A program made the position numbers and the translations under genes. This document shows, in pieces, positions 475 through 54,508 of a stretch of DNA of 64,000 nt (the stretch's first letter is position 1; every line of letters starts with the position of its first letter). The stretch is from Wuchereria bancrofti (lineage: Eukaryota; Nematoda; Chromadorea; Rhabditida; Onchocercidae), in NCBI GenBank assembly GCA_005281725.1, contig SSBO01000003.1:10661251-10725250 (forward strand), given 5' to 3'. The notes under the pieces were generated by a model. It worked only from the letters and a program-made list of their open reading frames with translations. It made no database searches and was not told where the DNA came from.

Positions 475-3400
475 TTACATTATTTTAATTAACAGTAACA
501 ACAGTAATTCTACAATTACAATGAAAATAGCTGTTGTTAGCTTGATGGAATTTCCAGAGGCCAACATATTTCTTGCTTGTATGTCTGAATATAATTTTGA
601 AATTACGATATTAGTAAAATTTCGACTAAAAATTTGAACTAAAAGTTATTAAGCTAAGCTGGAAGAATTATCATTAATTCATTGAATTAATGAGATAGAT
701 TTTGCCTAGGCAACAAATTCTATTCAATATTTGATATTTTTTGCGTTTCAAATTAGCAGGAAAAAATGAAATATCAAATGAAAAGTTCGAATTACTAATT
801 TAAATTTCAACCAAATTTTTTTTTAAATCCTACAAAAATTTGTTAAATTTTACTATTAAATCGTGTATTACTAGATAAAACAGTAAATAAAACTTTCATT
901 CAAATGAAAGGTTAGATAATCTGTAAATGACAGTCAAATTTTAATACTTTCATGGTAAACATTATTTTTGCCCACCTTTTGCAACATTTTGCTGATCTAA
1001 CATAATTGTATCGCTCTCATTTTCATTTTTTGCAATCGATTTACAACTGAATAATAATTCTTTGCCACAAACAATCTTTTCAAATGGTTTTGCAGATGAT
1101 TTGAGTGATATCTTTTTTGTTGTTAATTCTCGACTTGTTACATTTGAATGTGATTTTTGCTCTCTGTTTTCAGTCACATTTCGATAATCTAAAAAGAAAT
1201 CTTAAATAATAAATTATTATTATTGCTATATTTTTTAAAGAATTCTTTCTTTACTAAAGAAGAAAAAATAATGCTCTAACTTTTTGACTTTATTTTTTCC
1301 TTTTCTTTGAAAATCAAAATTTTTAAATTTACAGTGAAATTATTAGAAAGTGAAAGATTACAACAAAAGAAAATTTTAATTTCATAAAGTCATACTGCTA
1401 AGTGTGACGAAGTATTGATAAAAACCATTTTTCAACGTATCACTCAGAATGTGAACAGCGTAATATCCGGTTGATTGTACATAGTGCAATCGAACGGTTG
1501 AATGAACGGTTTGTAATGCAAAATATCCGGAATTATTTGGACTTAACATTTCATATATATAATTATTTGAGATGAATACTCCATCCATTTCAATATCATT
1601 TATAGCATTTTTATCCATGAATATCTAAGGAAAACCTTCTTCTAATTAATTAACAGAAGATTAAATTTATTATTAAAAAATAAAACAAATGGAAAAGATA
1701 GAAATATATTGAATGCTTTGTTAGCCAGATATAGTGTATACATATATCCGACTGACTTATCTATCAAATCAGTTGATCGTATTACAATTTTTGCTTTGCT
1801 ATAATTAGGTTATTAGACACTAATTAGTTTATTAGCATAATAGAAGTAAAGTTTAATTTAGCGTAAGTAGACGTAGATTTATAAAGATATCATTTTACAG
1901 CGTCATTTCAACTTTTGTAAATTCTCGAATCTTTATATTAACTCTTTTAAATCAAATCTGTCACTTTTATAAACTGAAATTCAGTTTTTACCAAATTGAT
2001 AAGGAGAAAATATTAATAAATAATATTAAATATGCAAAAAAAGAAAGAAAGAAATCTTTTTTATCATATCAATGATAAGTGTTTTACTAATAGTGAATTC
2101 TTAAATTTTAAAGACTTAATTTTTTTATAATGAAATTATTTTTACTTTATGTCAAGCAAAAAGTTATAAAGTAAAAATTTCAGTTGCTTCTTACCAGAAC
2201 CCAATTTTGATAATGACAAGCAACGAAATGACTTCTTCCCGTAACATATTGTAGAGTAGATGGAATAAAATCAATGTAACTACCTTTCATATTAGATGAA
2301 CCAAAATAATAAATTTGAATGTAATCATTTCTAAATTACTGTACATCAAAAATGATAATATTACAATGCTTACAGCTATTTTGCCTGCTACTATTAAACA
2401 AATATTTTTGCTGTACAAATAAAACTAAGCAATTATAAAGTTGAAAAAAATCAAATAAATAATAATTAAATACTGCAAAGAGAGAATAGTAATCATAATA
2501 ATTATTAATAATAATATAAAAGATTACCTACAATACATTGTTGAAAAATCAGAGAATATTTGCGCTGATAACTGAAAATAATGTTGCATCGTTGCTGGTT
2601 CAAATTTCAACCGTTTAATTTCTTTGGTGGCTGATTTTTTACGTGGAAAAAAATCCACGTAATACGCTGAACATTTTCTATCTGACGGTGTCATCGTGAA
2701 AAAACCCGAATGGTTGTAATGTTGTGCTATAAGCAAATGGTGCATATCATGCAATGACATATCGTTTTTCATTGAACAAGCTGAAAATATATTTAAATTT
2801 CAAAATTCAGCAATAGTCGTAATACAGAATAAAAAAGGAGGATAAATTTGTACCAATGAAATTATCATAACTTTATATTTCATGGATATTATTAATCAAA
2901 TTTCATATGTATATATATGATTAAAAATTTAATTAAACAATTTTTCAACAATATAAATTGCTTTATATGAAAGACATAATTGGAAATTTAATTAAATAAT
3001 TTCTCAACAATATGTGTTATTGCTGAAAAAAGTTGTTTGCTTGGAAAAAAATATGACACTATGAGCTAAATCAAATATAATATAAAAAAGTCTGAAAGAA
3101 TTAAAGGAAATATAGAAAGTGGCAGTAAAATTATCTATAAATATTAAAATCGTCTGCATAAAATGAAAAATTAAGAATGTAAGAATACCACTTTGTGATG
3201 GTATAGGTACTGCCATTGTACAACCAAAATCTAATCGACTTTCAGTATTGTGAATGATTAGCAATTGTTGCAGAGTAATAATCACTTGAAATGATTTATC
3301 ACTCCATAAATTCATTGATAGTTCTTCACCAGATCCATAGTAAGCAAAAATTGAAGAATTTCTTGCAATCTAATAAGTTCATGTTTTATTCAAATAAAAT

Positions 3401-6400
3401 TTAAAACAAAAAATTTTCCTATGTTTTGATTATAAATGGAAATGGAAAAAAATTTCTGCATATCTGAGTGATTTCTGTATTAGTGAAATGGAAAAATTAA
3501 AATTTCAAACCTCTTAGTGCTTATTTAATGTTTACTTATTTATATCTTAATAGTTTCAGCAGTATCATTCTTTTTATTCAAGAGAAAAAAGCAACTAATT
3601 AACTGTTCTATGCAATTAAGAAATGAAGCATGACAAAACTCTACTGTCGATAAGAGCATTACTGTAGCATAAAGTGTACCGTAGACATTTTTTTTGCTAG
3701 CATACTGTACCACAAATGTTTTAACAATAGCATTTATAAAAAAATTTATTAAAACTAGCGGAATGCTTTTATTCATAAAGCAGTTAGTAACAATTATATT
3801 AGTGTGAAAAATTTCGTATCTAAAAAAATAAGGGTAAGATAGCCAAAAAAGAGAAATGAAAATAAAAAATATTTTTCAATGAGTTTTTTTTACTGTGAAT
3901 TCAATCACTTAAAAATTGAGTCTGAGCAGAAATGCCTATGTATATGGAAATTTCCATTTAATAGTCGTTTATCATACTTTTTGTTTGCAAAAGTTAGTTT
4001 CAAAACTGAGTACGATAACGTACGATCAATCGATAAATTATTGGATAAATAAAAAACGCGAAAAAGATTTTTTTTGAAAACAAAATTTACCGTAGCTTTA
4101 ATATTGTAAAAATTTTCGTTCCCATCCACTTTTGCTATAACTGATATTTTTGTTGTTCGATAAGATGGTAAAAGATAAACAATTGAATGACTATTATTAG
4201 CCACTGACTTTGGTAATGAAAAGGAATAATTTCGACCAGCCATTTTTAATGGTAACACTAAAATATTCCTTTTCAATGCTTATCGTTTCTTATAATGCAA
4301 TAAAATTTTTGCTTTATTTTATTAGCTTTGTATAAATTGATTTTACAGTATTAATTAATATTTGCTAGTAAATTATAAATTATTATTTTATGTGATTAAA
4401 AAAAAATCATTTTAAATAATATTTGATATAATCGAGTCAATTGTGTTCAGTAAATTTGCCTTCAACCTTTGCGTTTTTTAATTACTGAAATCATTATCTA
4501 ATTTAATTCTTCATATTCACATTGAGAAGCTTTATGATAATAATGTTTACTTGTAAATCATAAATTAAAAAATACAGAATAAGAATAAATAAGAAACAGA
4601 AAATATTAAAATTACAAAAATAATACAGCTGTAAAATTTTTAATAGGATTATGAGACATGGAATTTTAAAAAGAAAATTAATTTTAGTAGTATAAATTTA
4701 ACTCAAATGCATATTCCGGTGAAAATTTCTTCTTTCATTTTTCTTTTTAATAAAAGCTTAGAGTCGGAACTGTATCACCACTGTCTGTACGATTATCATT
4801 TCATGAATTAGATGAGTTATCATAACAGAATTATTTTAAACTAGGATGACAATATATGAAACCTGTAAAACTGTCACCAATTCTATTGCCGATAAAACAA
4901 GATTGGGTGACAGATATTGGAATAGTAGATGTTATCGTGATTCGCGAATCATAATTACTCTTATAAATGCTAACATTGTATGCATTATAAAGTTTTGTCA
5001 TCATTATTTTATTCATTTTCAACTGAAAAAAAACAAACCTTTCACAAATCTGAAATTAATCTTTTTCAATGTTCAAACTTGTAATTTGACAACCTAACAA
5101 CATTAAATTAGTTTGAAAAAATCTTTAAATAAAATTTTCTCTTCAAAAATCTGCTCGATAAACTATAAAATATAAAGAAAAATGAAAAGAAATCGCATAA
5201 TTTCTGCTGAAAATTTGACAAACAAAAAAATTAATTGTTAAAAAATGAAATTAACCTTATGATGTGTGTATGGTTTAATGTTATATAACATTTCAATCAA
5301 ATTTCCTTTCGATCCATTACAATAGCTAATTCGAACTTTTGCAAACATGTATGGATGAGGGTTAAGGATGTCAAGAGTTAAATCAGTGTTGAAATTATCA
5401 CTGGCATTCTCGACTGTCATCCATGGAAATAATGTTATAAACGATACGCCGAAAATATCTTGGTGATATGAGTTTGCATTATTTCTCATCGTCCATTTTA
5501 GCGTTTCCGTCGGATATGCTAAAAATTTTTGACGAAAGAAAAGTTAAAGTTTTCTAATGCATGCTAACAAAAGTGATAAAAATTTAGTAATGTTTGATAA
5601 ACATTTATTCGTTAAGCTTAACTTTCAAACATTTAATTAAATTTGATAGGTAGAATAAACTTCAACTTTAAATTTATAACTTTTCTCCCCCTCATATCCT
5701 ATGACTAGTTATTTTAAATTTTAAAAATTGATTCATTTGAATAATTTTAAAAAAATGTAAATATTTTCATGAATTTTTCTTGGTTTTATTTTTTTATTTT
5801 CCTTATTCTATTTTTAAAAAAATAAAAAAGATACAGTTTCAAAAAAATTTTTTACCATTAAAAGCATATGCATAACCATAATTTTTCCTGTTTCCACCAA
5901 ATATAAAAAGTAAATAACGTCCGTTTGATTCCAAACAATGCATTCCACGCTCTAATCTTGTTGTATTAATTTTGCGCATTGTAATGGAACGAAATGAATT
6001 TTCAAAATATTGCACATATTCCGCACCAATTACTTTACCATCTAATAGTATGCTGTCCAGTTGACGTGAAATATCATAGAGCTAAAGTAAGAGTAACGAA
6101 AAAAGGTTTTTTAATGATTTAATTTCGTTAATTGTTGTATAATAAATCTAAAAAAAGTTTTCATCTAATGAAAACGACACATTAATCAATTCATTAAGTT
6201 TAAAAGGTTCTTTAAAGAATTAATTATTCAACTTAATGCGTAAAATTATGTTTGAAAGTAATTCAATAATTTAACTCTAAATTTATTTTTAAGCAAATTA
6301 TTTTATAAATGTTATTTCGGAGTAATTATCCTCTTTTTTTGCAGTATAAAATGAGCATTTTTGTTTAAATATCTTTAATATACATGCTCATTTGCTAAAA

Positions 6401-9400
6401 TGTTTGACTTTATTTTCGTTTTTTCGCTTTTTTCTTTTTGTTTAACTGAAATTAAATTTCAGTTTTTTTTTTTTTTGATAATATTTGATTAATAGACCTC
6501 TCTCTTTCCCTCTCTCTCTCATATAGTTTTTTTTNTTTTTTTTCTTTGAAATTCTTAAATTGAAATCATTTATCATTTTAATTATTTATAAGGTATTATA
6601 GAATTAAATTCATTCTCCAATGGAACAAGAATAATTTGTTCATAAAGATGAAAAAAAAAAAGATTTAATAATGAATTAGATAGAAAAAAAAAAAGAATTT
6701 TAAAATTATACTTTGAACTATTTATTCCAACCGGATGCTTTATAAATTTTTAGGATAAAAAATTTTTTTGAAATTTTTATAGATTTCAAACGAAAAAAAA
6801 AGACAACAACAAAAACAAAACAAAAGAAATGAATTTATTGTTTGATTTTTTTTCTTTCTTTCTTTTTTTTTCAAAGTTTTAAAAATGATAAAAATTGGTC
6901 GTACAGTAAATTAAACTAATTTCTAAACATATAAACTTATCATTAGCTCCTAATTAATTTAAATTTCATGCAAAGACAATAAAATAAAATGAATGGAAGA
7001 GCAAAGATTTTAAGTAAAAAGTAATTATAAAATGTATAGTCATATTACCTTTTACTTCATTTACCTTATGCTAATTTATCTTTATTAAAGTAAATCGTAT
7101 GAATAGCAACTTCAAATAATTTTAAATTGTATGAATAGCAACTTCAAATAGTTTTTAAAGTTTTTTTTTTTTTAAAGATTTCATTTCTTTATGCGTAATT
7201 TTGTGGTTTGTTTGTAAAATCGTAAAATGAATTAGCAATCCGTGAAATTATTGACATTGTGTTGTAAACTATTAACAAAGAAAAGTAAAGAAAATATGAA
7301 ACAATCCAGTCATTAAGTATACAATGCTAATCAAATATACAAAATGTACATAGTAATTCAAATTTAAGTAAAAAGTAATCATAAAATGTGTGCTCATATT
7401 ACCTTTTCTTTATAAAAGTAAATTGTATGAATAGAAATTTGAAATAGTTTTAAAGTTTTTAAAACAGATATGAAATTAACTATTTTATTTCAAGATATCA
7501 TTTAGATGCAAATATGATTAAATAAATTAAATTTTACTTTGAAGAAAAAAACATTTTTCAAGGTACAATGAAATTATTATATTTCTTTAGGTCTAATAAA
7601 ATTTACACTTTTAAAATATTAGATAATCCGTATAGCAATATATACGCCATATCTTAACATTGACAATAAACTTTTAGTTAGTGATAAGAAAAGTATTTTA
7701 AATGCTGCTTGAAATCATTGATGAGTTAAATGAAAAAAACTAACAAATAAATGTTCACTTTCATTTTTATACGGAAAACACATTCGTCCGGTGAGGTACT
7801 GTGAGTAAGCAGGTATCATATCCAGAAATGAGTAAAGGTTTTGATATGTTTCAAAGCGAAGTAATTGAAAGAGAGTATTGCTATAAAAGTGAAATTATCA
7901 CATTTACTTTGTATTTCTACACCAATATTTTGTAAACTTTTTGTTATCTAATTTTGGTTATCAGCAAATAATACAATCAATAATGTTTTCTACGTATAAG
8001 CAAATTAGATATCATAAAAATTAGGTTTGTAAAAATTATCTGGAATGAAAAAATCATAAAATTTAATTGTTTGAAATAAATAATGAAACAAATACGGTTG
8101 ATAATGCTTTAAACAAACCTTTTTAAATTGGTGAAGTAAAAAATTAGAAAGAAAAAGTTTGGGGAAAAAAGAAGAAAGTTAAACAGTCTGAAAAGTTAAA
8201 GAAAGCAATGATATAATAAAAGAAGAAGAGCAAAGGAACGAATGTAAAATATTAAATTTAAGTATAATACAACTAAAATCTTAGCTTAAATATTGCACAG
8301 GCAGAAGATTAAGTATGAAAAATTCTGTTAAATAATAAAGATAAAAAGTGAACTTTGATGCATAACCAATGATTGCGTCTTTAAAGTGATAATTCCATTC
8401 AATTGCGATATCATCAAAGATATCACAAGGTTTAACATCAATTAACTTTGTATTATTAGGTCGGAATGTGGCGACAGTAAACGCTTGACAACTTTGCATC
8501 GGTGGTGACAGGAAGAGATGAGTTTGACAATTCTCGGAAGATTGCAAGGGAGTGAAATGAGCGTCGAAATCGTCTCGAAGTGCTATTTGAGAGTAAACTG
8601 AAAATGGCATTCAAATATGATGAAAAATTCGTTTTATTTATTTTTGTTATCTTTGATTTTTATTTTTTGATAACATTTTTATTTCTGTCATAGAAAATGC
8701 TATTTAAAGGAGAAAATTTAGAATTTGAAGTCAAAAAAAAGTGCAGTAAAATTGATGAAATCAAAGTTCATCTTTTTTCTCTTTTCATTTTTTTTATTCT
8801 ACTTCTGCAATCTAATAATATTCAGTTTAAAATGATTTCTTTTCTTTTTTAAACAAATTATCATTTTTCCAAATTAATTAAATTATTTCAAAAATGATTT
8901 CAACAGCTTCAACAGATTTAATCAACTTCTTTAATATTAATTTATTCTTTAACTAATTTAGTTTATTTAACATTAATTTTAATTTATTTGATCCAAGAAA
9001 TTATAATACCATTGTGGGGCAATGGCATAAGCATCGTACATGCAAAGCTTTCATTTGAAATTTTCATCAATTGTGTTTGCATTGCTAATAAAATTACAAT
9101 TGGTGATGAACTTGTTATGTACACAATAGAGGAATCATTGATTGAATTATTGTATGCATAAATCATCGATCCACGATCAAACTGAAAACTAATTCGAAAA
9201 ACAACAAGAAAAACGGAAATGATTGAAATAATGATATCAAGTAATTAATTAATTCATTTCAATTTGCTAATATAGTCTAAATACCATTTTTTGCCACATA
9301 TTAATTACTTTTTATTAATTGAATTCTAATAAAATAGGTTTTCATTTTTAGAATTTTATAAAAACATTTGATATAAATTAAAAATTTCTCTGATTAAAAT

Positions 9401-10626
9401 GCCGATTTCTCTTCCGTTTTTAGGAAAATAGAGGAATGATTGGAAATGCAATAAATTTCTAAAAATTTATTTGTACCCGCGAAATCCTATTGGTTCGTGT
9501 AAAATTTTTCCTTGTAATCGTTGTAATGTTTATGTATGAATCGGTATATGTCGGTATGAAATAAGCTGTTGATATGCCACTATCGAACATAAATGTTGCA
9601 ATTGAAATTGAAAACGAATAATGATTTCCGGCCATGGTTACCGGTAAAACTGAAAAAAAAAAAAAAACCTGAAAATGGTAAAAGTTTATAATATGTTTGA
9701 AAATATTTTAGTAAGTAAATGTCGACGTCTAATCAACAATAATTCCTTTTTTTTTGCCTTTCTCTCTTTTCTTCCCTTCTGAAAATATAAGAAATTGAAA
9801 AAATGGTTTTAAAATGTTTTTTTAAATGGCGTTAAAAAAATATCTCACAAATAATTTATTTTAAATTATATTGAAGAAAGTAGAAATGAATTCATTAATT
9901 ACTACCTGTGAAGCAATCACCATTTTTACGGGTGATAAAAATGCATTCTATGATTGAAACTGATAAATTTGAAGAAATGAAAATTCGTGTTGCGCCAACT
10001 GAGATGACACTTCTTCTGTCGTCTTTAAATGGCCGTGTCATTACCATCGTTGTATCAAATTTATGCTAAATAAACAAGTAATTATAATTATTGGTTTAGA
10101 GCTTTATAATTTTAAATTTAACTATAATTAGTGAATAATTTTCATGCAATGAAATAATCTTTTTTCTAAAATAATCTTTTTTGAATGATTTGTTTGATAA
10201 TTTTTTAAATGATACTGTTTGATCTATCATGATGTTACGATGTATTTTTAATTTCAAAGAAAAAAAGGATTATCTGATTTGCTTTATTTACATTTTTTTA
10301 TGATAAGATGAAGTGATAATAGAAATTTGGCCAATGAATTTTAATAAGAGACAATATTTTGTCAACGAAACTGACTGTAATGTAAGAATTTGGTGGGATG
10401 TGAATAAGATCCTTTGATAATTCCGCCATACTGTTGAAATGTCCTAAGCCAATGTCATATTCAATGACAATCGTTGCTGTCTCATTTTCTGATGCATTAA
10501 CGATTTCAAAGGTAAGAGAGGTACTATTTGATACTTTGTTGCTCCATGGAAATAGCGTTACAAATTGAGTGCCAAATGTATTTGGGTAATTCTTATTAAT
10601 TTTCATTATTGCTCTTTGTATTAGCA
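475..10626 (-). CDS. Tandem two-module IgGFc-binding-like surface protein (5' end incomplete)
   Basis: Sixteen exons in transcript order: module A 10376-10626, 9906-10065, 9477-9649, 9010-9181, 8354-8597, 7745-7880, 5856-6081; module B 5256-5518, 4863-5022, 4091-4257, 3189-3369, 2528-2780, 2195-2330, 1396-1624; tail 976-1188, 475-584. All phases agree and give about 1,024 residues. The modules align throughout: GTQFVTLFPW with GVSFITLFPW, GDCFTG with GDSFTG, VLPVTMAGNHYSFS with VLPLKMAGRNYSFS, IPAYSQYLTGR with IPSTLQYVTGR. Exon 7 of module A carries YGYAY. These resemble the N-terminal IgGFc-binding domain of FCGBP-type proteins; the family call is from memory of the pattern. No VWD or TIL cysteine pattern is seen. 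The tail has N-glycosylation sequons (NVT, NES) and ends in a hydrophobic stretch (TAIFIVIVELLLLLL) just before the stop, so a GPI or membrane anchor is likely. Several donors (GTCAGT, GTTAAT, GTTCAC) are weak and were chosen by module alignment. Likely role: extracellular adhesion or mucus-like surface protein (inference). Confidence 0.72.
7012..7460. repeat. Imperfect duplicated segments in an intron
   Basis: A block around 7012-7165 (AAAAAGTAATTATAAAATGT, then a motif containing GTATGAATAG) recurs at about 7367-7460 with substitutions and deletions. Inside the first block, GTATGAATAGCAACTTCAAA itself occurs twice about 31 bases apart. It lies in the 1.66-kb intron between the sixth and seventh exons of module A. 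No coding capacity is seen; local tandem duplication is the simplest reading. Confidence 0.5.
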
Positions 10627-10915: not shown

Positions 10916-12128
10916 TCAATTTCAGCTGAAAATGTCGCAGTTTTTGTGCGAAATTGTGAGAAAAGTTAATCAATTTATGTTAACTTATAATGTTTCCTCT
11001 GAGAGTTATTTTTTAAAACTCTATGGCGCATCCTTTCGGAATACTTTGACAATACCACCTGGAAATTCTGAAAATTCAGATTGATTCCGCTCTTTCCCGC
11101 TTTTTTTACTCCATAAGAAGTTATTTATTATTAGCTTGACAAATCATATGATTTATCCATTTTATCAAAACAAAATTTCAATAGTAATGATGACCTTTAA
11201 CCCTATATTTGATTGTATCATTAATAATGATTCCTAAGTAATGATGACTAGACCTGAATGAGATTAAAACAATGTTGTGTCCACTTTTCCAATTGAAAAA
11301 GAGCCTAGTTAATTTTAATTATAACAAGTTAATTTTTAAATTAATTTTAGTTATAAGCAATATTATATACCTGTGAAACAAATAAGCATTTGGAATTTTT
11401 GAAGCATATTGCAATTCAAGGTATAAATATTTGCATGCTGAAATTTTATCTAAAATTTTCAAATTAAAATTTTAAGGCTTATGAACTTTGGTCTGATTGT
11501 CAATTTTTTTCGGAAAACTTCACCAAAATGTTACTGTTAGTGTGAAAATATATTTGTTAATTTTATGCTTGCTTGATGCTTGGAAAAAATTTATGCTGGC
11601 GAAAAAAGACTTATTTTGAAATATTTTTTCATTTATACTTTTTAAATTTTCTGTAAGAGAAAAATTTTTGATTTTACAAATGAAAAAAATGTGGAAAATC
11701 TTTATGTTATGAAATATTTGCATTAATGAGCGCATTGAGTAATTTCATTTTGCCTTTTTTCTTTCTTTTTTTTAATTTTAGAAAAGCATTTTCAAAAGCG
11801 AAATACTTTTCTTTCATCTAAATTTAATTTTTTTTTCTTTTTTTAATTGGAAAGAATTTCTACTCTGAACAAATAAACAAATTTCGTTATCACACAAATT
11901 CAAAATAGCATAACAATCAAAATAATTCATAAAAACAAAACAAACAAAAAATGAAACACAACCAACCAACAATGTGCAAAAATCGTAATGAAATACAAAT
12001 TAATATTGTTTTGCTTTTTATAATTTAACAAAAACATTTCAGGTTGCTAATTTAATTTCACGTGAATGCTTAATTTATTAGCAAAGAATTTATTAATAAA
12101 ACCTTTTATTTGGAAAAAACTGATAATT

Positions 12129-15103: not shown

Positions 15104-15288
15104 CGAATAATTATGAGAATAATTACAAGCACAATGATAACAATGATAAGAATCAAAATAGTCGCAAATTCTTTAATCGCTTTCTTTTTCTTGCGTATAA
15201 ATTGCAAACATAGTTTCAATTTTGGTTCGTGCCTTCCATTCATTTCCAGTTTTGATGAAATTGTCACTCGGTTATCACACTTTTCCAT
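15104..15288 (-). CDS. Probable first coding exon with N-terminal membrane segment
   Basis: An ATG at 15288 opens 61 codons that run into a good donor, CG|GTAAGA. The N-terminal ~40 residues are hydrophilic and end in a basic patch (RKKKKAIKEF). A run of about 20 isoleucine, leucine and valine residues (FATILILIIVIIVLVIILII) follows, so the exon encodes a cytoplasmic N-terminus plus a signal anchor (type II topology) or an atypical signal peptide. It lies on the same strand upstream of the two-module IgGFc-binding-like gene and is its natural candidate 5' exon. The exon ends in phase 2 whereas module A starts in phase 1, so at least one unseen exon between 15.1 and 10.6 kb would be needed; otherwise this belongs to a separate small transcript. 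The non-repetitive 5' half looks coding; the hydrophobic half is AT-rich and could mislead. Confidence 0.45.
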
Positions 15289-18200
15289 TTCCTTTATGTG
15301 ATTGAAGTAATGCAAATTAGATATTTATGATTGAAAATAATAAGTTTAGTCTAAAATTAATTAAACAATTGCAATTAATTATGTAATCTTTGCAAAAAAG
15401 CCATTCATTAAATTAATTTTCTTCTTCCACTTTTTATCAGTGTAATGTTTTATCATTGTTTGTATTTAATAGGGAAAATTAATCACATTTTTCAGATAGC
15501 AAAAATGTAAAATTGTGTTACAATGAATCAAAACTAAAACAGTAATAGCAGAATGGACGAATTTTTACTGTTGAAATATTATGCATGAAGTTATATCAGT
15601 ATTATCAGTGATAGCATGAACGGTTTGCCTTTTACCTTTTATGAATTTACGAGATGAAATGAATTGAATGTATGTAAATAATCAATTGATCAACTATCAT
15701 CAAATGTCACTGTTGTCATCAAACGAATTACATATGCAAAAATTTCTCTTTTTTTTAAAATTACTTCATTTTCGAAAAAATAAATTATTGTTTCAGTTCC
15801 TTAATTTAATAAATGCAAAAAAAAAAAGAAAATGAAAAATCAGTTAAATATTTTTCTTACCAAATTTTGAAATGCTAACAATAAATAAGTACTTGTTATT
15901 GTTTACTTATTATTACTTGGTGTAAAATACTTGTTATTGTTTACGTTTGTGATTTATTCAATTAAAGGAAAAAAATTTATAGCATCGTGAAAATTATCAA
16001 TAACAGTAAGTGTAAACGAAACAATAACAGTAAACAATTTAGTAGTAAAGGAAAAAATCGACTTAAATGATTAGTTAAATCAACAATTTAAATACAAAAA
16101 ATTTGATAAAATCTTTACCTTTTTTTATAATTAGCAAATTGAACAACGTTTCAACTTTTTTTGCTCAGAGAAAATGAAAAGAAATATTTTTGTCAGGAAA
16201 AATTGTTGTTTAACTGATTATATTTGTTCAGCTTTACTGTTTTTTCCTTTTTTTCATTTTTGTTTACTGTCATTGGTTTCTTTCTCATTTTATCCTTTTC
16301 GTATTTTCGTTTAATGTTTTTCATTAAATAGTAATTATATTCAATATCATACACTGCAGGCATCATATAGATCATTTAATAATACTTATAAAAAATTTAC
16401 TACGAGAAAGCAAAGAAAAAACAATAAATCGTAATTTGATCAGATCAATAAAAAATTTTACAAATTTAACAAAGCAAGAAGAAATATTATATATTTCTGA
16501 AAATTTAATTCTAATATAATCATTAATATATATATATATAATCATAATTATATTTGTAAATTTAATAAACGTATTCTTAAATATTTCTTTTATATGTTTT
16601 TATAGTGATTGATTTTTTCTTTTTTTGAAGGTAATTTTAAGAATAGTTTTACTTTATTAATGATTTGCTCATTCTGAAATCAATATTTCAGGTTGATCTA
16701 ACTCTTATCACTTCTTTTTCTGTGTTTGTTTGTTTTTTTTTCTTTTAACTCTGGTACTTCACTTAGCTGTGATGCTTAACTGAAAACTGATATTTCATTC
16801 TGTTCCCTTTATTTGCCGATATTTTTGCTTCCTTATTTAATCTCTGTTCATATTTTTAGAGCAACATGAAATGTTAATTTCGGTTTTGCTTTGTTTTGTT
16901 TTCTTTTTTTTTTCAACAAATGAATTGAAATGGAAATATTCAAATATTAAAAAATGTGATGTAAAACTTTAATCAAATAATTAAATGAGTTTTACACTTT
17001 TTAATTTGCGCTTTTTCACTTCCTTTCAAGCATCAAGTATTCAAAAATGAAAAGTAAAATAATAACCAAATATTATAAGAAACTTTTTGAAAATTTTCAA
17101 TTGAAAAGCATTTGCATAAATTTCTTCTTACTTACACGTCCTTTTACCTTTAGTTTTCTTAATTTTTAAATTTTCATTTTTTATCAGTGTTTATCTAAAC
17201 ATATATATGTACAATATATTTCGTTTTCCACAATAATATTTTTATGAATTTTTCATAAATAATATTAAATTGCTTTTTTTAATATTTTATTGGCATTTTA
17301 TGTTTTAATTTTCCAATTTTATTTCATATTTTTATAATTTATTGACATTTCATTTTTTTTATAAAAAAAGAAAAAATGGCAAAAAAAAACAAAGACTAAC
17401 CAATATTAACGGTATTAAGATAAGTGACATCTGGCATCGATGCAATGTCCCCTAGTTGTGATCATATTCTAAATGATACAACATAATTTTCAATTGGTTT
17501 GTTGACGATAATGGTGATGTGATTTTACCAGAAATTATAGCTCTCTTAAGAATTTAAAATTCATTCTAAATTATGCAAGAAAGAAAAAATAAAAAGTAAC
17601 AAAGAAAGGAAAGGAAATAAGTTTACTATTATTACTTATGAAATAAAAATAAATGTGAATTTAAAGAAATGTCTCAAAAGTTTTCTGTTTCTTTTTTTCA
17701 AATTATGTCATAATTTTTATCATAATTTCAGTCTTTAATGAACCATAATCTACTGTAGTTTTATGATAGAATAGTTCATTTTTTTTAATTTTCATTAACA
17801 AAATGAAACTAATAATTATTACTGCACTTTTTTTCTAGTCTACCTATTGAAAAGTGTAATTATTCATTTTTGTTCATTTTAAAATATTATTGTTATTATA
17901 ATGATTCAAGCAAGGATGTCAGATTATGTGACAGACTTTATGGCAAATCGTTTCCAATTAATAAGATTGTAGGACACTTTGAAATATTTTAAGAATTGAA
18001 CGAGAAAAGGAAACAAAAAAGTAGCAATAATTCTTTAATTAGAAAATTTAATTTGCTGATATTTTAGAAATTTGACGTTCGCAAATTCTTTACCGTTATT
18101 TTATTCAAAAGTGCATTCTATTTAGCATAATTATTCGATTTGTAAGTGGGAAAACTTTTATTAAATTGCTATATCGGTAATTAATTGAAATTGATAATTA

Positions 18201-19092: not shown

Positions 19093-19425
19093 ACAGTAAT
19101 AGGAATAATAATTAATATATAATAATAATGACAAATAATAATAATGATAAATTTTACTAGTTTACATGAAATTTTTATAAATTATAAAAGAAAATAGAAT
19201 TAAAATAGAAATGATCATGGTTTTTTATTAAGTTAATTTTTGTTTTACNNNNNNNNNNNNNNNNNNNNNACAGTAATAGGAATAATAATTAATATATAAT
19301 AATAATGACAAATAATAATAATGATAAATTTTACTAGTTTACATGAAATTTTTATAAATTATAAAAGAAAATAGAATTAAAATAGAAATGATCATGGTTT
19401 TTTATTAAGTTAATTTTTGTTTTAC
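19093..19425. repeat. 156-bp exact duplication flanking a 21-N gap (likely assembly artefact)
   Basis: Bases 19093-19248 and 19270-19425 read the same, and the gap of 21 Ns (19249-19269) sits exactly between them. Two contigs sharing a terminal overlap that was scaffolded rather than merged would give this pattern. The true sequence probably has one copy. Confidence 0.85.
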
Positions 19426-21455: not shown

Positions 21456-22216
21456 CAACCAACCAACCAACCAACCAACCAACCAACCAACCAACCAACC
21501 AAACCAACCAACCAACCAACCAACCAACCAACCAACCAACCAACCAACCAACCAACCAACCAACCAAACCAACCAACCAACCAACCAACCAACCAACCAA
21601 CCAACCAACCAACCAACCAACCAACCAACCAACCAACCAACCAACCAACCAACCAACCAACCAACCAACCAACCAACCAACCAACCAACCAACCAACCAA
21701 CCAACCAACCAACCAACCAACCAACCAACCAACCAACCAACCAACCAACCAACCAACCAACCAACCAACCAACCAACCAACCAACCAACCAACCAACCAA
21801 CCAACCAACCAACCAACCAACCAACCAACCAACCAACCAACCAACCAACCAAACCAACCAACCAACCAACCAACCAACCAACCAACCAACCAACCAACCA
21901 ACCAACCAACCAACCAACCAACCAACCAACCAACCAACCAACCAACCAACCAACCAACCAACCAACCAACCAACCAACCAACCAACCAACCAACCAACCA
22001 ACCACACCAACCAACCAACCAACCAACCAACCAACCAACCAACCAACCAACCAACCAACCAACCAACCAACCAACCAACCAACCAACCAACCAACCAACC
22101 AACCAACCAACCAACCAACCAACCAACCAACCAACCAACCAACCAACCAACCAACCAACCAACCAACCAACCAACCAACCAACCAACCAACCAACCAACC
22201 AACCAACCAACCAACC
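21456..22216. repeat. Giant (CCAA)n tetranucleotide array
   Basis: About 760 bp of almost pure CCAA (TTGG on the other strand), roughly 190 units. There are only a few interruptions: an extra A near 21501, 21568 and 21853, and a CCACACC variant near 22003. The unit has no stop codon in any frame, so it yields spurious ORFs of ~260-300 codons on both strands (Pro-Thr-Asn-Gln or Gly-Trp-Leu-Val repeats). The interruptions shift frame, and no acceptor, donor or conserved flank suggests translation. Confidence 0.95.
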
Positions 22217-26265: not shown

Positions 26266-26911
26266 CCTTTTCTCTTCTCTTTCTTTCCTCTTTTCTTACT
26301 CTCTTTGATAAATTAGGATTTTAGTGATAAGTTGATAATTCATACGGTGTATCTAAATAATCAGATCAGTGATATCAGTGATATCTTGCTCGTATTGACT
26401 AGAATCAGCTGTAATCAACAATAATACTAGCAGTTATTCTAATAGCATCAATCTTTCATTCATTTCATCGCATTATTATTATCATTGCTATTCTCATTAT
26501 TATTTTCACTTTTATTGTTATTGTTGAAATTGATTATGAAATAAATACTTTTTGAAAATGTAAGGTTTACAAATAAAAATTTTTACAATTTTAATTTCAA
26601 TATATTATTTTATTAAGATTTATACAAAAATTTTCAGTGAGTAGTGTAAACATTAGAAAATATTATTTAAATTTTATTTTAAACAGATTCTTATCCACTT
26701 GTTTTTTCTTCTTTTTCTTTATTTTTTTCTTTTTTCCTTTTTTACATCGACCAATGTATGTGGAAAAATTATTGAAGAAAATTTTCAAGAGAAATGGAAA
26801 GAAAAAATAAATGATACTAATATTTTTTTTTTTTTTAAAAAAAGAAACATTGCAGAAGAATTAAAATTGCAGAGATTATAAACGATCAATTGAATATTAT
26901 TCTCTTTAATT

Positions 26912-29900
26912 ATGGCTAGAACAGGTGAGAAACGTTCCATAGATACACTACATGCAAATATCCCGGCACCTGGACACTTTCCTGACATTCCACTCGATTT
27001 GGCAGCACGAAAACGATTCAAATTTATGATTGATCATTTGTTGGATACGGGTGGTACCGATGAAAAAGCTGAAAAAACGACAATTGCTGCAGGAACCAGC
27101 AACGATAGTAAGGATAATGCTGAGATGGACGAAGGTGAGAGTAGCACGGAGCAATTGCCCAAAACTTCACCGTTACCCGGGAATTCTCATATACTTCAAC
27201 ATATCACATGTCGACTGGAAGGACGAGAATTGTGGAACAAATTTTATGAACTTAGCACCGAAATGATTATTACCAAAAGTGGACGGTAAGTTTGTCTTTG
27301 TTTTTCTTTTTCTTTTTAATTATTGTTAGAAAATAGTCACTCTTATTATGATAAAATATCCTATCTGATATAATTTTAAAAAAAGCTAAAAAGATAGACT
27401 TAAAACATGGCAAGTAAAATGGACAACAGATTAAAGTAAAATTAAAATGTAATTTAAAGAATTAGTTGTAAATTACACTAATTCAAAAAGCATTGATTTT
27501 GAGGAATATATTAATTTTGCAAATATATTAATGAAAGGTTTAAGCGATAAAATTTTCAAGTAATTTTTTTCAAATCTTAATTTTATAATTTTGAATATTT
27601 TCAATTTAATGCAATGCTATTTGACCTATTTTTCTTTGCATTCTCAAGTTTTAATAATTACCAGTTTTTTATCAATAAATATTAACTGATTCCAGCATTG
27701 ATAATATTATCATTTCTCATTTATTCTAATGTAGCATACATTGCTGATGCAAATTTCAGCTCAGGCAAATCATTTTTGTTTGCTTAAAATTAAAAAAAAA
27801 GCTAATGCTAAAAGAAACAGAAAAAAGGAAAAAGTAGATTAATTGTTTCAACTATTTAAATTAATACATTATTTCAGATATTCAAGACATAATAATATTC
27901 AATCTAAATATTTTAGGTACTTAAAAAGAAATGTTCTTAAAAAATAAACAATTATAATTACCTTTTCCATCTTAATTTCATGACATAACATATATTAATA
28001 TCACATGAATTGTTCATCAATATGCAAAATGTGAGCATTTGTCGCTTATCTTATGGGATTGATCATTCATCCTCAGTAAAATGAAATTTACTCATTTAAA
28101 AGAATTAACAATGTAGCAAGTAATTTTATTTGTATTGAAATGCTTCCATAGGTGACAATTTGTAATATTACATTTTTGATGATGTCAAAGAATGATTGTG
28201 AAGAATGAAAGGAAGCGATAGTTGATTGGAAATAAAATGAAAATGATAAAAGAAGAAAGAGCGTAGAGTGGTGATTCAAAGGGAATTAGCGTGAAAGAAT
28301 AACAAATAATTTTACTTTACATAACATTCATTTCTTAAGTAATTCAGTTAAAAGCATAGTAAAATAATGCGCAATTTGCGAAATTGCTTTTATATCAATG
28401 CTATTTTGTTGCATCCCTAATTAGTGCTTAATGTAAGCAACCAATAATTGCTAATGCAACAACAACAATTTTTAAAATTACGGTAGTTAAAAAATGACTG
28501 ACCGTATCAATCTGTAATGAATCGAATCAATAACATAAATACATAAAATTTGCTTACTTTTTTATTGCTATAAGACTATAAATTAAATATATAGTAAATT
28601 TAATATTTATTATTAAAGTAGTCAAAAAAAGAAACTGAACAATAAGAAATGACTAAAATTAAATGAATAATTGAATACAAATTGATAACATTTATGAATA
28701 TAACTGAAAATCATTTACAAATAAAAAAATCCTTTTTAACATAAAACTAAAAATTCTTTTTTTTTTCATTCTAATACTTTTTTCCTCATTCATATTTCAC
28801 TTCTCAAGCCATTGTTAAATTAAAAAATTTCGACATTTCCAAATTTAAAAGTCTTGCTTGTTAAAGTTCAAATATTTATGCAATGATGATCTCTTCATGC
28901 TCTTTTGTGATAGTGATGACGATGATGATGATAAAAATGATAACAGTGAAGCTTTCCAATCAATAAAAAGCAAACAGAAACATCCGTTATCTGATTGCAT
29001 CAATCTTTTCATTGTTGATTTTTTTCCCTCAAAATTTTTCTCACTTTTTTTGATTTCCGAAGCAAAACACTGAAACTTTTTTTTTTCTTTAAAGTATATT
29101 AAATGCGATTTATACTAATAAAATGATCCATTTAATATTAGCAAATTTTTTATAATTGTTACTAACACTAAAATTTAATCAAAAACATTGTTCCGTATTC
29201 GTCAACTCCCTGTAAAATATTTACTATTATTATTTTATTACTATCATTACTGTTATTAATTATTATTATCATCATAGTAATTATTATCATTGTATTTTTT
29301 ACGATACATTTTAACTTGATTTAATAAAAATCTTTTATTATTATGGCAAGCAAGAATGCAATAAACTATTTGAGCATACATATATATATATAAAGTTGCA
29401 TTTAACTGAGCCATATTGATCGTTACTGACTGTCACCATCGCACACCTAGACACTACTGTATCGTTGTCATCCCTGCACCCATTTCAGTTCAAATTCATT
29501 TCAACAACTTTGAATTTACTATTAATCAGAGCATTAAATTTCTTATCCCGAAAATATTTCGTTTTAATATAAAATTGTTTTATTTTTGGGCTAATGTAAG
29601 AAAATTGTATTGGTATCAGTTTATTACGCCACAAATTTGAATATTAACAATGAATCTTTTTATTTGAATTAGTACTTTTTACATTAAAATCAAAAAAAAA
29701 ATGCTCATTAAGCTAATACCAATACAATTCTTGCAATAACTTTTCAAAAAAATTGAAAAAAATAAAAAAGAAAATATAACAATATTTAACACAGATAGCC
29801 TAGAAATTAATTTATTACCTCATTTAATTTCATTCATTTCAGTTAACTTAAAATCTTAATTGAAATCTTTTGTAATCAATCTGATAAGGAAAAAGAAGCA

Positions 29901-37927: not shown

Positions 37928-40900
37928 TTAATTTTTCAGTTTTGATTGGTCATAAGTGAAATGTTTGATCAAACTGAGCACAGAATGAGCAAGCTGTACA
38001 GCGTCTGGATGAGCAAATCTTGAATTGACTAAACGCAAAAATTCTTCTCGTCCTCCTTGTGAAAGGAGTAACTTTATATAGTTATTTTGTCTATCACTGA
38101 TGCATACATGTTGGATTGCCCATGCAGCCCACATTTGTGCCCCGGTAATACCATCTTGTTTCAGTAACACAAAGAATGGTACAAATGACCTAAAAATAAA
38201 GTGCACATACTTGAATGAGCAAGCTTTAATTCAGGTCATTATTCAGTAAATTTCGTTGCCATATTATCTACTAAATTCGCCCTTGTAAGCGAAAAAAAAA
38301 AAAAACAGTTCTACTTCCTAGAACATAAAAATGACTCTTGGTAATCCAAAATAACCGTTACGCTACAGAAAAAAAAAGTAACAATTACCGATAGGCAACC
38401 ATAGTTAGCAGTGCTTTGGGCCATCTTTTTACTGCCATTATCTATAATCAAGTGAAATGAAGTTAATGACAACTACAATATGTCAAAGAGATAAAAAATA
38501 AAGTACAGTACTGAGTGTACCGTCAATTCACTCCGCTATGCCACTGTAATTTTTTAATATTTAAAATGTATTCACTAATTATTTAGCCGTTATTACTGCA
38601 CAGAAAAAGAGCTGAAATTATAATAAGTCACTTCTCAGCTGAAAAAAAAAAAAACCAACCAACGATTGATTACAGTGATCCGATGTCGGTTCAAATGTCC
38701 ATGGGCCACAGTCCAACAGATTAGCCAATATTCCAGCAGCGAAATATGAAACATCGATATGCCTTGCATTACCAACAGCTGCAGCGTAACTATCAGGCAT
38801 CAGATCACTTTCCAGCAATTCTCTAAATAGTTTTGTTGTTTTCGAAAAATACAATTCGCGAAACCAGCAAATTAAATTTATCTGTAGAATAGTGCATAAT
38901 CTATTAAGAATCATTTGATAGTTCCACTTTTCATTTTAACTCGGAATCACGTGACAACATCCGGAAATGCTTCATCACCTAAATACAAAATAAACTTACA
39001 GAACTGTCCGAATATATCGATGATGTACTATTCGCTTCTTCAGACCTCTTACTTCGGCAATGTTATTCTGAAAAATAAAATATATCACTATTTTCTATTT
39101 TCAACATCATTCGCTATTTACCAACAAGAAAGAAATATATTTCTTAAAATTGCATATTGTACTAGATTTTCATACAAAAGTTAACTCTATAAGTAGTTCT
39201 AGAGTAGAAATTTGAAATTTCCATGATTATATTTATTTCATCTACCATAATCCCATCTACCATAATTCTTATCAATCTGCATAGAGTGTGGCATCCAGGT
39301 AAAGTTTGACAAAAAATTATGAGTTATGCCACAACAAACTGCTAAATGAATCAAACTACGTAGTATACAGAAAGACTAGATTTTATGTACATATCACTAA
39401 ATACAAAATGCACTCACCAAAAGGCCAAGAACCTTGGTTTGTATATTTGTATTATTTTGGTATTGCTCCAAAATGCCAAATGCCGCTGCAATTCCACCAA
39501 GCTGTACAAATAGTCGACATGTAACCGGTGATTCGTCTAAAATAGATCAGAAAATAAAAGTAGAATAGGAAGAAAATGACAGGTTGACAAAAAGCTATGA
39601 GTTAACAAATGAATGTTCAAAAATAAAAGGATTCAAATAGCAATTATCGCTGTCAATACAAATTATTTTGTCCATTATTTCTTAAGTGCTTTTAATAATT
39701 TAAATTTCTGTACTTCTAGCCTCATGAAAACGGTAAGGAAAACCTATCATAGCTGAATATATTATATATAGTACCAATTGGGCTTTGGATTAGAAATCTA
39801 AAACCAAAACACTGGACAGCAAAGTATCAGAATGACTAACACATCTGGTGAGCTATGGCTCTATATATTTCATATTCAAATAAAAGTAAAGTACCTGTCA
39901 AATTCCAGAGCGCAGATAGGGTAAATTTTACTGTGAAATTATTGAAATTATCGTGTCCATTGTCGGGATTGTCTAGATTTTCATTGATCATTTCAATCAA
40001 GTGCGCAACATATCGTTTATTTGTGGCTAAAAGATGACTTTGTTCGGTAGGTAATTTGGGTGCCAAAATTGATACAACTGCGATCGTCATTCTGCAAAGG
40101 AAAATGATAAAGAATTCCAGAAATAATAAAAATATATAATAAAAAAAAAAAAAAAAAAAAAACAAAACTACATTCACGAATTTGGAACTACTAAGAAATC
40201 CGCAGGCAGGAATTAGCTTAATGGATTTTCTCATGTTGAAAATTTCCAAGAATTTTAGCTTCTCGGAATGAATTTGACAAGAAAATCTTTGTCCTTTCAC
40301 ATCTCTGACGACATGAGCTTTACCTTGAAACTGAGGGGTCTCGCGTGTTTACCATTGATTCTAAGGCTATTTCACATGTACGGAATATATCAAAATTTAG
40401 TGACTGTAATAAGTGATCGCTACATACCGTAAGCCATACATTCTTTTGCAGCTAAAAGTAAAAATTAATTCTTCTCGATAGAAATTTAATACGTTAAAAG
40501 GTTAGTGGAGAAAAATTTCTTTTGAAACCCTCTTGCATTCAGGAGGTAGGACTGTTATCCCAACAAGAATAATAACAAAAATCATACCTGGACCATCCGA
40601 GGATGATTTTCTGCCGCATCTAAGCATCGATCAACACAGCATCGCGTCTCTTGTGCGGTAAGTTGATTAATTCTTTTTGATCTATAAAAATTCACTTATT
40701 CTGCAAATACCAGGAGAGTAATTAGACATTCAAAAGTAAATAAACATGAACAATACATCCATTCTTACTTCCGCGTTAATGGTTCACTATGACTTAGCCA
40801 AACAATCCAGAACTTACTTGCAGAGATGATAAAGGCAAGCACTCCCTGCCATCTGTATTGCAATGTTTTTTTTGTGATTAAGCATCGACAATACAACACC

Positions 40901-52392: not shown

Positions 52393-52597
52393 AAATCATT
52401 TAAGAAACTCTGAACTTAAATCATTTAAGAGACTCTGAACTTAAATCATTTAAGAGACTCTGAACTTAAATCATTTAAGAGACTCTGAACTTAAATCATT
52501 TAAGAGACTCTGAACTTAAATCATTTAAGAGACTCTGAACTTAAATCATTTAAGAGACTCTGAACTTAAATCATTTAAGAGACTCTGAACTTAAATC
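52393..52597. repeat. 25-bp minisatellite, eight copies
   Basis: Eight near-perfect tandem copies of a 25-base unit (contains CATTTAAGAGACTCTGAACT), with one variant base in the first copy (AAGAAACTC for AAGAGACTC). It lies ~300 bases downstream of the last possible gcs-1 exon. There is no long ORF through it. Confidence 0.92.
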
Positions 52598-54508
52598 AAC
52601 TTAAATTTTCTTTTTAGTTCCCTTTTAGCTTCTTGTCTTTTTTTTCCTTTTTTTCATTGCAAAAATGTCATAAAAGAGAAAAAAGAAAATGACAAGATGC
52701 TAAGTCAAGGTTTGCAATCGATGAGTGAAATAGAAAAGATGGAAAGAATTTTTAAAAGGCAAAGGAACATTTCCATCAAATTTTATTTAATTCTTGAAGG
52801 TGAAATAATAGCATAGCAAAATGATATAGGGGACAATGGAATAATGAAATTATAGAATGAAAAATGAGGGGGAGGGAGAGAGAGAGAGAGGAGAGAGAAC
52901 GATGAATAAATGGACCAAACTACTTTCTTTTCGAAGAAATTGCAATATTGGTCACTGGAATGATTTTTGCTGAATAAAGATTACGATTATGACGTCATAC
53001 TGGTAAGATTTCAAATTTATTATTATTGTTGTTACTGTATTTATTATTATAATTGTAATTTTTTATTATTTATTAATTAATTAGTTATTGATTATTACTA
53101 TTATTTATTAGCTAATTATTAATTATCATTAATTATTTATTTATTATTATTAATTAGTTAACTATTAATTATTATTATTTAAGACGCGTGAGTAATACAA
53201 ATGGTGGAACTGATGAAATAAGAGGAAAGAGGTAGAGAGAGGGAGGGAGAGAGAGAGAGAGGTAGAGAGACAAATAGAAAAAAGGGAGATATGGGAATTC
53301 ATAAGGCTTTTTTTTGTCAACATTTCGACGAAATTGCAATGCGATATATTTCATTTTTTGGTTTAATCAAGCCAAGATTATATGATGTGATGTCATAGTT
53401 GTTAAACTCAATCAATGTAAAGCATAAATTCCATTAGTACATTATTGTCGTTCATTTGTCGTAATTTTATCGCAAAAATTTTGACAATTTAGCTTAAAAA
53501 GTTATTACTCTCGGATTTAGATATAATGTTTGAAATGTTTGTTATATGGAGTGCCACTCCAAATTTAATAATTAGCTGCGTTATTGGTATGATTGCAGTA
53601 TTAATTTTAAAACTTTAGTGATTCATGGAATTATTTTTTGAAAATTGATTGCTCGAAATTTATCATCGTAGAATAATCTGCTATTTATCATCTTTTCTTT
53701 AAACAATTACCAATCAATTTATTTCTAAAGTTTCATCATCTTTCTTTTTTCTGTTTTCTTTGATAAATTAAACAAAGTGGTATCCATGCAGTTATATGGC
53801 GTATTTTGTCTTTAACTTCAGACGTATTTAATTTTAATTTTTTCACTAAACAAAAAGTAACTAATCATTTGAACGAAGTTTGATATTGTCACAAGTGTAC
53901 TCTTTCCTTAGCTATTTAAACAAGACGAACTTTTTTCTTTCATTTTTATTTTCACCTTCTACACATTATGAAGAGAGTTGCACTTTTAATAAACTGAAAT
54001 AGCAAAAGGAAGTAAATTGGAGAACAGAATGAAAAGAAATGTAATATAAATTGGTGAGCTGGCTAAACTGAGAATATTCAGCCAGAAATAAAAAGAAAAA
54101 TTTTAATCGAGAATAATGACGAATATGATATCAACTAACCTTTTTTGTTAATTCTCAAGAAATAATCTTTCCACCATCAATGTTGGCTTATTTACAGAAT
54201 AAAGAAAAAATAAAATTAAATATTATGCAAGATTTATATTATAAAGAAAAAGAAAACAATTTATCCAAGCAAGAATGATTCGAGAAATATTGAGCATAAT
54301 TCTTACAAAAAAAGAAAAAGATTGGAAACAAAGGTATGAAAGTGAACAGATGCCATAATATGAAGAAATATGAGGTAAATGATGAAAACAACAAATTCTA
54401 ATTTAGAATTCGCGCTCTTCTGCTTTTAATTAATTATATTGCCGAAGTGTTGAAGTGCTGCGGTAGGAATTACAGCAGCTGTGATTGAATCGTTATTGGT
54501 TGAATAAA
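52598..54508. other. Simple-repeat-rich intergenic DNA
   Basis: Contains (GA)n-type runs at 52868-52898 and 53230-53272 and an ATT/TTA-rich low-complexity block at 53010-53180. No exon or RNA gene is recognised. Confidence 0.55.

What the first reader, a model, noticed from the sequence alone, without database searches (positions are those of the whole stretch)
1396..10626. Seven-exon module duplicated intact within one surface-protein gene
Modules A (5856-10626) and B (1396-5518) each have seven exons with the same intron phases in the same order. Both begin and end in phase 1 and can be joined in frame. Two exon pairs have identical length (160/160 and 136/136) and the rest differ by 3-12 bases, although the protein has diverged widely. 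This indicates an old tandem duplication of a whole IgGFc-binding-like domain as a symmetric phase 1-1 unit, under strong length constraint at two exons. Two such domains, no VWD repeats and an anchored C-terminus is an unusual architecture and could be an expanded parasite surface family.
Basis: partly seen in the sequence, partly recalled or inferred. Interest (0 to 1): 0.75.

Follow-up and report, generated by a model that had tools for sequence, protein, structure and literature searches.

The report
Doubled IgGFc-like domain in filarial worms
In a filarial worm, a gene for a secreted, probably membrane-tethered surface protein carries the same seven-exon domain twice; single-copy relatives with the same exon pattern elsewhere in the genome support an old in-frame doubling, and similar doubled-up proteins are already known in frogs.

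Summary
On the minus strand two modules (A 10626-5856, B 5518-1396) each have seven exons, intron phases 1-0-1-0-1-2-0-1 and exactly the stated lengths; they are homologous (26% identity, E 6e-38). They lie in one predicted 17-exon, 1036-residue gene that starts with a 37-nt signal-peptide exon at 11407-11371, not at 15.3 kb, and ends in a GPI-like tail. The species is probably Wuchereria bancrofti. Two single-module genes in the genome share all six internal introns, so the module is older than the doubling; a second two-module gene shows the doubling predates that gene duplication. No sequence passes the Pfam IgGFc_binding cut-off, but filarial and bacterial profiles match (E 6.5e-7 for this one pair). 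Not supported: strict exon-length constraint; an expanded family (four loci found, though divergent members could be missed); a unique architecture (frog PRIT proteins). Ligand binding is untested. Verdict: a clean phase 1-1 tandem duplication, a new variant of a known kind.

The parts
11371..11407 (-). exon 1, start codon and first half of signal peptide, ends in phase 1
   Evidence: resembles A. viteae P0004 N-terminus and the 37-nt exon of the C4 paralogue
10376..10626 (-). A1, 251 nt, phase 1-0
9906..10065 (-). A2, 160 nt, phase 0-1
9477..9649 (-). A3, 173 nt, phase 1-0
9010..9181 (-). A4, 172 nt, phase 0-1
8354..8597 (-). A5, 244 nt, phase 1-2
7745..7880 (-). A6, 136 nt, phase 2-0
5856..6081 (-). 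A7, 226 nt, phase 0-1, end of module A
   Evidence: joined to B1 at this place in 9 of the 10 predicted proteins
5256..5518 (-). B1, 263 nt, phase 1-0
4863..5022 (-). B2, 160 nt, phase 0-1
4091..4257 (-). B3, 167 nt, phase 1-0
3189..3369 (-). B4, 181 nt, phase 0-1
2528..2780 (-). B5, 253 nt, phase 1-2
2195..2330 (-). B6, 136 nt, phase 2-0
1396..1624 (-). B7, 229 nt, phase 0-1, end of module B
976..1188 (-). linker exon, 213 nt, phase 1-1
   Evidence: present in P0003, which leaves B7 earlier and reads through the end of this exon to a stop
475..584 (-). last exon with hydrophobic GPI-like tail and stop
   Evidence: similar tail in the C4 paralogue at 16897-17001 and in P0009

Best explanation
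The window holds a 17-exon gene of a filarial nematode (most likely Wuchereria bancrofti) for a secreted, probably GPI-anchored surface glycoprotein. Its ectodomain is two direct copies of a seven-exon, about 450-residue all-beta module that is a distant relative of the IgGFc_binding domain. The module is bounded by phase-1 introns on both sides also in a single-module gene (signal-peptide exon, module, tail exon), so recombination in introns could double it in frame. That happened before the filarial lineages sampled here split, and before the two-module gene itself was duplicated to a second locus. Shown by sequence: exon anatomy, homology, shared intron positions. Inferred: expression as one transcript, GPI anchoring, glycosylation, order of events. 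Function, inferred only: a tethered adhesion or scaffold ectodomain of the worm's surface, where two domains in a row give reach and multivalency; I put this function at about 0.4, apart from the confidence given below for the structure and history.
For: Splice sites, phases and homology. Open frame of 1036 aa over 17 exons. A runs into B at the same place in 9 of the 10 proteins. Second two-module locus on C4 with the same signal-peptide exon and tail. Two single-module genes on C12 with the same six internal introns and phases. Tree of 20 modules: A and B each one clade, 100/100, each with both loci; A+B against the other modules 95/91. IgGFc link: profile-profile Prob 92%, E 6.5e-7, score 59.4 against at most 21.4 in 60 shuffles, at most 21.9 in 40 more and 15.1 reversed. 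AlphaFold2 mean pLDDT for P0012 rose from 48.6 to 71.6 and pTM from 0.48 to 0.78 when 15 bacterial IgGFc_binding rows and P0019 were added and P0001 left out.
Against: No transcript data were at hand; the database proteins are predictions or of unchecked support, and they differ at the ends (P0003 lacks the last exon; P0005 runs A into B with a shortened A7). No single sequence passes the Pfam IgGFc_binding cut-off (gene b, P0007 and P0018 were not scanned). The profile match weakens for subsets: A rows E 0.0045, B rows 0.0051, A+B 0.016, a-type 0.018, a+b+Thelazia 0.00017. The pLDDT gain was not controlled with unrelated beta rows. The tree joins long branches, as the program warns, and AU tests do not reject trees that place Thelazia's second module with A or B (p 0.064, 0.071).
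Confidence: 0.8

Rival explanations
1. Two adjacent or operonic genes, A and B, each with one module; the acceptor of B1 would then be a trans-splice site.
For: A7 read through its donor meets a stop within five codons, the A-B intron is only 337 nt, and nematodes trans-splice (recalled).
Against: B alone has no signal peptide and A alone no anchor; the junction is phase 1 on both sides; 9 of 10 database proteins, under the names of six species and covering both two-module loci, join A7 to B1 at this place, and the tenth (P0005) joins with a shortened A7. Most or all of these are gene predictions.
Confidence: 0.07
2. The two-module gene arose by fusion of two different single-module genes, not by tandem duplication of one module.
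For: A and B stems are very long (1.5 and 1.6 changes per site); two divergent single-module genes exist; AU tests leave A+a+b and B+a+b open (p 0.070 and 0.062).
Against: A+B group at 95/91; A or B with gene b (p 0.013, 0.002) or with a alone (p 0.017, 0.016) are rejected at 0.05, uncorrected for eight tests.
Confidence: 0.2
3. The modules are not IgGFc_binding-like; the beta-rich profile match is a coincidence.
For: No Pfam hit above cut-off; P0012 reaches only 12.0 bits of 25.6, and in another register than the profile match; no usable whole-fold match in the PDB; subset profiles are weak.
Against: Collinear 310-column match, shuffles and reversal all far lower, a shared C-terminal H...G...YGY pattern in the alignment, length agreeing with the 450-residue H domain of FCGBP (PMC9354016, passages), and IgGFc-binding names given by sources to 12 of the 19 homologues.
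Confidence: 0.1

Closest known systems
Amphibian PRIT proteins (tandem IgGFcBD; Nat Commun 2024, PMC11237159)
   Same: Signal peptide, several IgGFc-binding domains in tandem by exon duplication, VWD supradomains lost in some
   Different: PRITs are secreted glue or skin proteins, in glue-makers with disordered repeats between domains; here two domains are joined directly and end in a GPI-like tail
FCGBP, human IgGFc-binding protein
   Same: About 450-residue N-terminal H domain that gives the superfamily its name (passages of PMC9354016); FCGBP itself was not compared here
   Different: In FCGBP 12 VWD-type repeats follow; none found here. IgG binding is not shown here
Brugia malayi BM9105 and Bm9924
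   Same: 88% and 90% identical relatives of the window gene and of the C12 single-module gene, called uncharacterised
   Different: BM9105 as predicted lacks the signal peptide and the end of module B
Bacterial IgGFc_binding (PF17517) proteins of the Myxococcus phylum
   Same: Profile match over exons 2-7 of the module
   Different: Bacterial, with other neighbouring regions; the module's first 110 or so columns are not covered

Membership tests
IgGFc_binding, PF17517 / IPR035234 | score above Pfam cut-off 25.6 bits | tested here: not met
   no hit for A and B, 0 of 9 members of A1, none for gene a, 1 of 8 at 12.0 bits, E 0.12; gene b, P0007 and P0018 not scanned
IgGFc_binding, PF17517 / IPR035234 | profile-profile homology with accepted members | tested here: met
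   20 filarial/Thelazia modules vs 30 bacterial domains: Prob 92%, E 6.5e-7 one-to-one, 60 shuffles max 21.4 vs 59.4; subsets much weaker
IgGFc_binding, PF17517 / IPR035234 | about 450 residues, beta-rich, behind a signal peptide | tested here: met
   435-462 residues; mostly strands in the model of P0012, mean pLDDT 71.6; signal-peptide exon judged by eye
IgGFc_binding, PF17517 / IPR035234 | binding of IgG Fc | not testable with these tools
   needs protein
FCGBP / VWD mucin-like proteins | VWD-C8-TIL repeats | tested here: not met
   no Pfam VWD in modules A and B or in 9 members of A1
PRIT (tandem IgGFcBD) | disordered repeats between domains (in glue species) | tested here: not met
   A7 joins B1 directly
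PRIT (tandem IgGFcBD) | tandem IgGFc-type domains without VWD | tested here: met
   with the IgGFc link at profile level only; PRIT description read
GPI-anchored proteins | N-terminal signal peptide and hydrophobic C-terminal tail without cytosolic part | tested here: inconclusive
   seen by eye in window, C4 paralogue/P0009, P0011, P0019; no predictor run

The most novel reading that the evidence does not exclude
Filarial worms display a tethered, doubled IgGFc-binding-type ectodomain that captures a host ligand such as immunoglobulin Fc or mucus glycoprotein: a parasite coat built on the same domain that mammals use in mucus defence.
Probability: 0.07. Interest if true: 0.8.

Novelty: new variant of a known kind. 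Interest (0 to 1): 0.36.

Why it matters
It ties a set of uncharacterised filarial proteins to a domain superfamily found in bacteria and animals, gives a testable history (single module, doubling, gene duplication), and offers a defined, probably surface-exposed ectodomain family of human filarial parasites for expression and ligand tests. The listings of searches show no paper on filarial members; they cover only open-licence PMC papers, and of the nematode papers listed only PMC4046973 was opened (passages).

Full report
Anatomy. The window is AT-rich DNA of an 86.5 Mb assembly in 108 contigs (G000). Adding a 37-nt first exon (11371-11407), a 213-nt linker exon and a last exon (475-584) gives an open frame of 1036 residues in 17 exons, with 24 N-glycosylation sequons and 18 cysteines. 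The first exon reads MLQKFQMLICFT, close to the N-terminus of Acanthocheilonema P0004 (MSRKLEMFVYLA) and to a 37-nt exon of the paralogue (MPGKFEILTYFS).

Species and single gene. Of 10 homologues, P0003 (W. bancrofti) is 99% identical over 57% of the query; P0006 (W. bancrofti) matches the second locus C4 at 96-100% in 9 of 13 tblastn pieces, the other four being pieces that run over intron ends. So the genome is most likely W. bancrofti (inference). A7 is joined to B1 at the same place in 9 of the 10 proteins: P0001-P0004, and P0006-P0010 of the paralogue type; P0005 joins A to B with a shortened A7. P0006 and P0007 are two predictions of one gene. None of this is transcript evidence that I could check.

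Family in the genome. Searches with A, B, gene a and gene b hit only four loci: the window (C3), C4:17.5-24.3 kb, C12:17.33 Mb and C12:22.76 Mb. The searches go exon by exon and score only the best candidates; the A query did not list B exons nor the B query A exons, so members as far apart as A and B can be missed. C4 is a second two-module gene with a matching signal-peptide exon and tail; its B6 exon was not found cleanly. The C12 genes each carry one module. Gene a: 245,148,170,166,214,151,214 nt; gene b: 251,157,164,172,220,145,226 nt; both with the same phase pattern. I chose splice sites for these two genes with the pattern of A and B and database relatives in view, so the agreement of phases is partly built in; exon homology and the intron columns are less so. 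In the four-way alignment introns 1, 2 and 6 are in the same column in all four modules, intron 3 within 2 columns, introns 4 and 5 within 5 columns. Gene a matches A and B at E 3.8e-22 and 3.1e-22, gene b at 1.0e-14 and 3.7e-19, two-sequence or three-sequence searches. P0011 (B. malayi Bm9924) shows the single-module form as signal peptide, module, linker, hydrophobic tail; a fitting signal-peptide exon of gene a ends in phase 1 as well (17335648, by eye). So a phase 1-1 module existed before doubling.

History. In a tree of 20 modules the five A rows and the five B rows each form a clade (100/100), and each clade contains both loci, so the doubling came before the gene duplication and before the filarial lineages sampled (Wuchereria, Brugia, Elaeophora, Dirofilaria, Acanthocheilonema). 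A+B against the other modules has support 95/91, with a long-branch warning. Of eight AU tests, A or B with gene b or with a alone are rejected (p 0.002-0.017), but A or B with Thelazia's second module, or with a+b together, are not (p 0.062-0.071). Tandem duplication is favoured over fusion, not proved. Thelazia P0019 has two modules with a linker between them; its second module falls with the single-module types on a long branch, so it may be an independent doubling or a predicted fusion.

What is known. I read section 8 and passages of PMC11237159: amphibian PRITs lost VWD in some species and gained tandem IgGFc domains by exon duplication. From PMC9354016 I saw passages only: FCGBP's H domain is 450 residues. 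From PMC4046973 passages only: an Ascaris protein is labelled IgGFc-binding but its BlastP match is apolipophorin. The listings of searches name no filarial member; other listed papers were not opened.

Verdict. Function remains inferred.

Noticed in passing
window 19093-19425: A 21-base N run (19249-19269) is flanked on both sides by the same 156 bases, which looks like an unclosed assembly overlap.
   Followed up: yes
window 21456-22216: CAAC tetranucleotide array of about 189 copies, 98% matches.
   Followed up: no
window 52393-52598: 25-bp tandem repeat, 8.2 copies, 99% matches.
   Followed up: no
window 26894-27289 (+): Exon with the start of a T-box domain (PF00907, E 1.3e-6).
   Followed up: partly
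window 37928-38935 (-): Exons of a zer-1/zyg-11-like gene (PF22964, E 7.6e-19 and 7.6e-7; weak PDB match to ZYG11B, E 0.03).
   Followed up: partly
window 15104-15324 (-): ORF with a lysine run and a long hydrophobic stretch before a good phase-2 donor; not joined to this gene, unexplained.
   Followed up: partly
L016, C4:23097-23250: Exon A2 of the C4 paralogue has GC instead of GT at the homologous donor (154 nt), or an earlier GT (139 nt) as in P0006.
   Followed up: partly
L016, C4:18080-18600: The B5-B6 region of the C4 paralogue is predicted differently in P0006 and P0009 and no clean B6 exon was found.
   Followed up: partly
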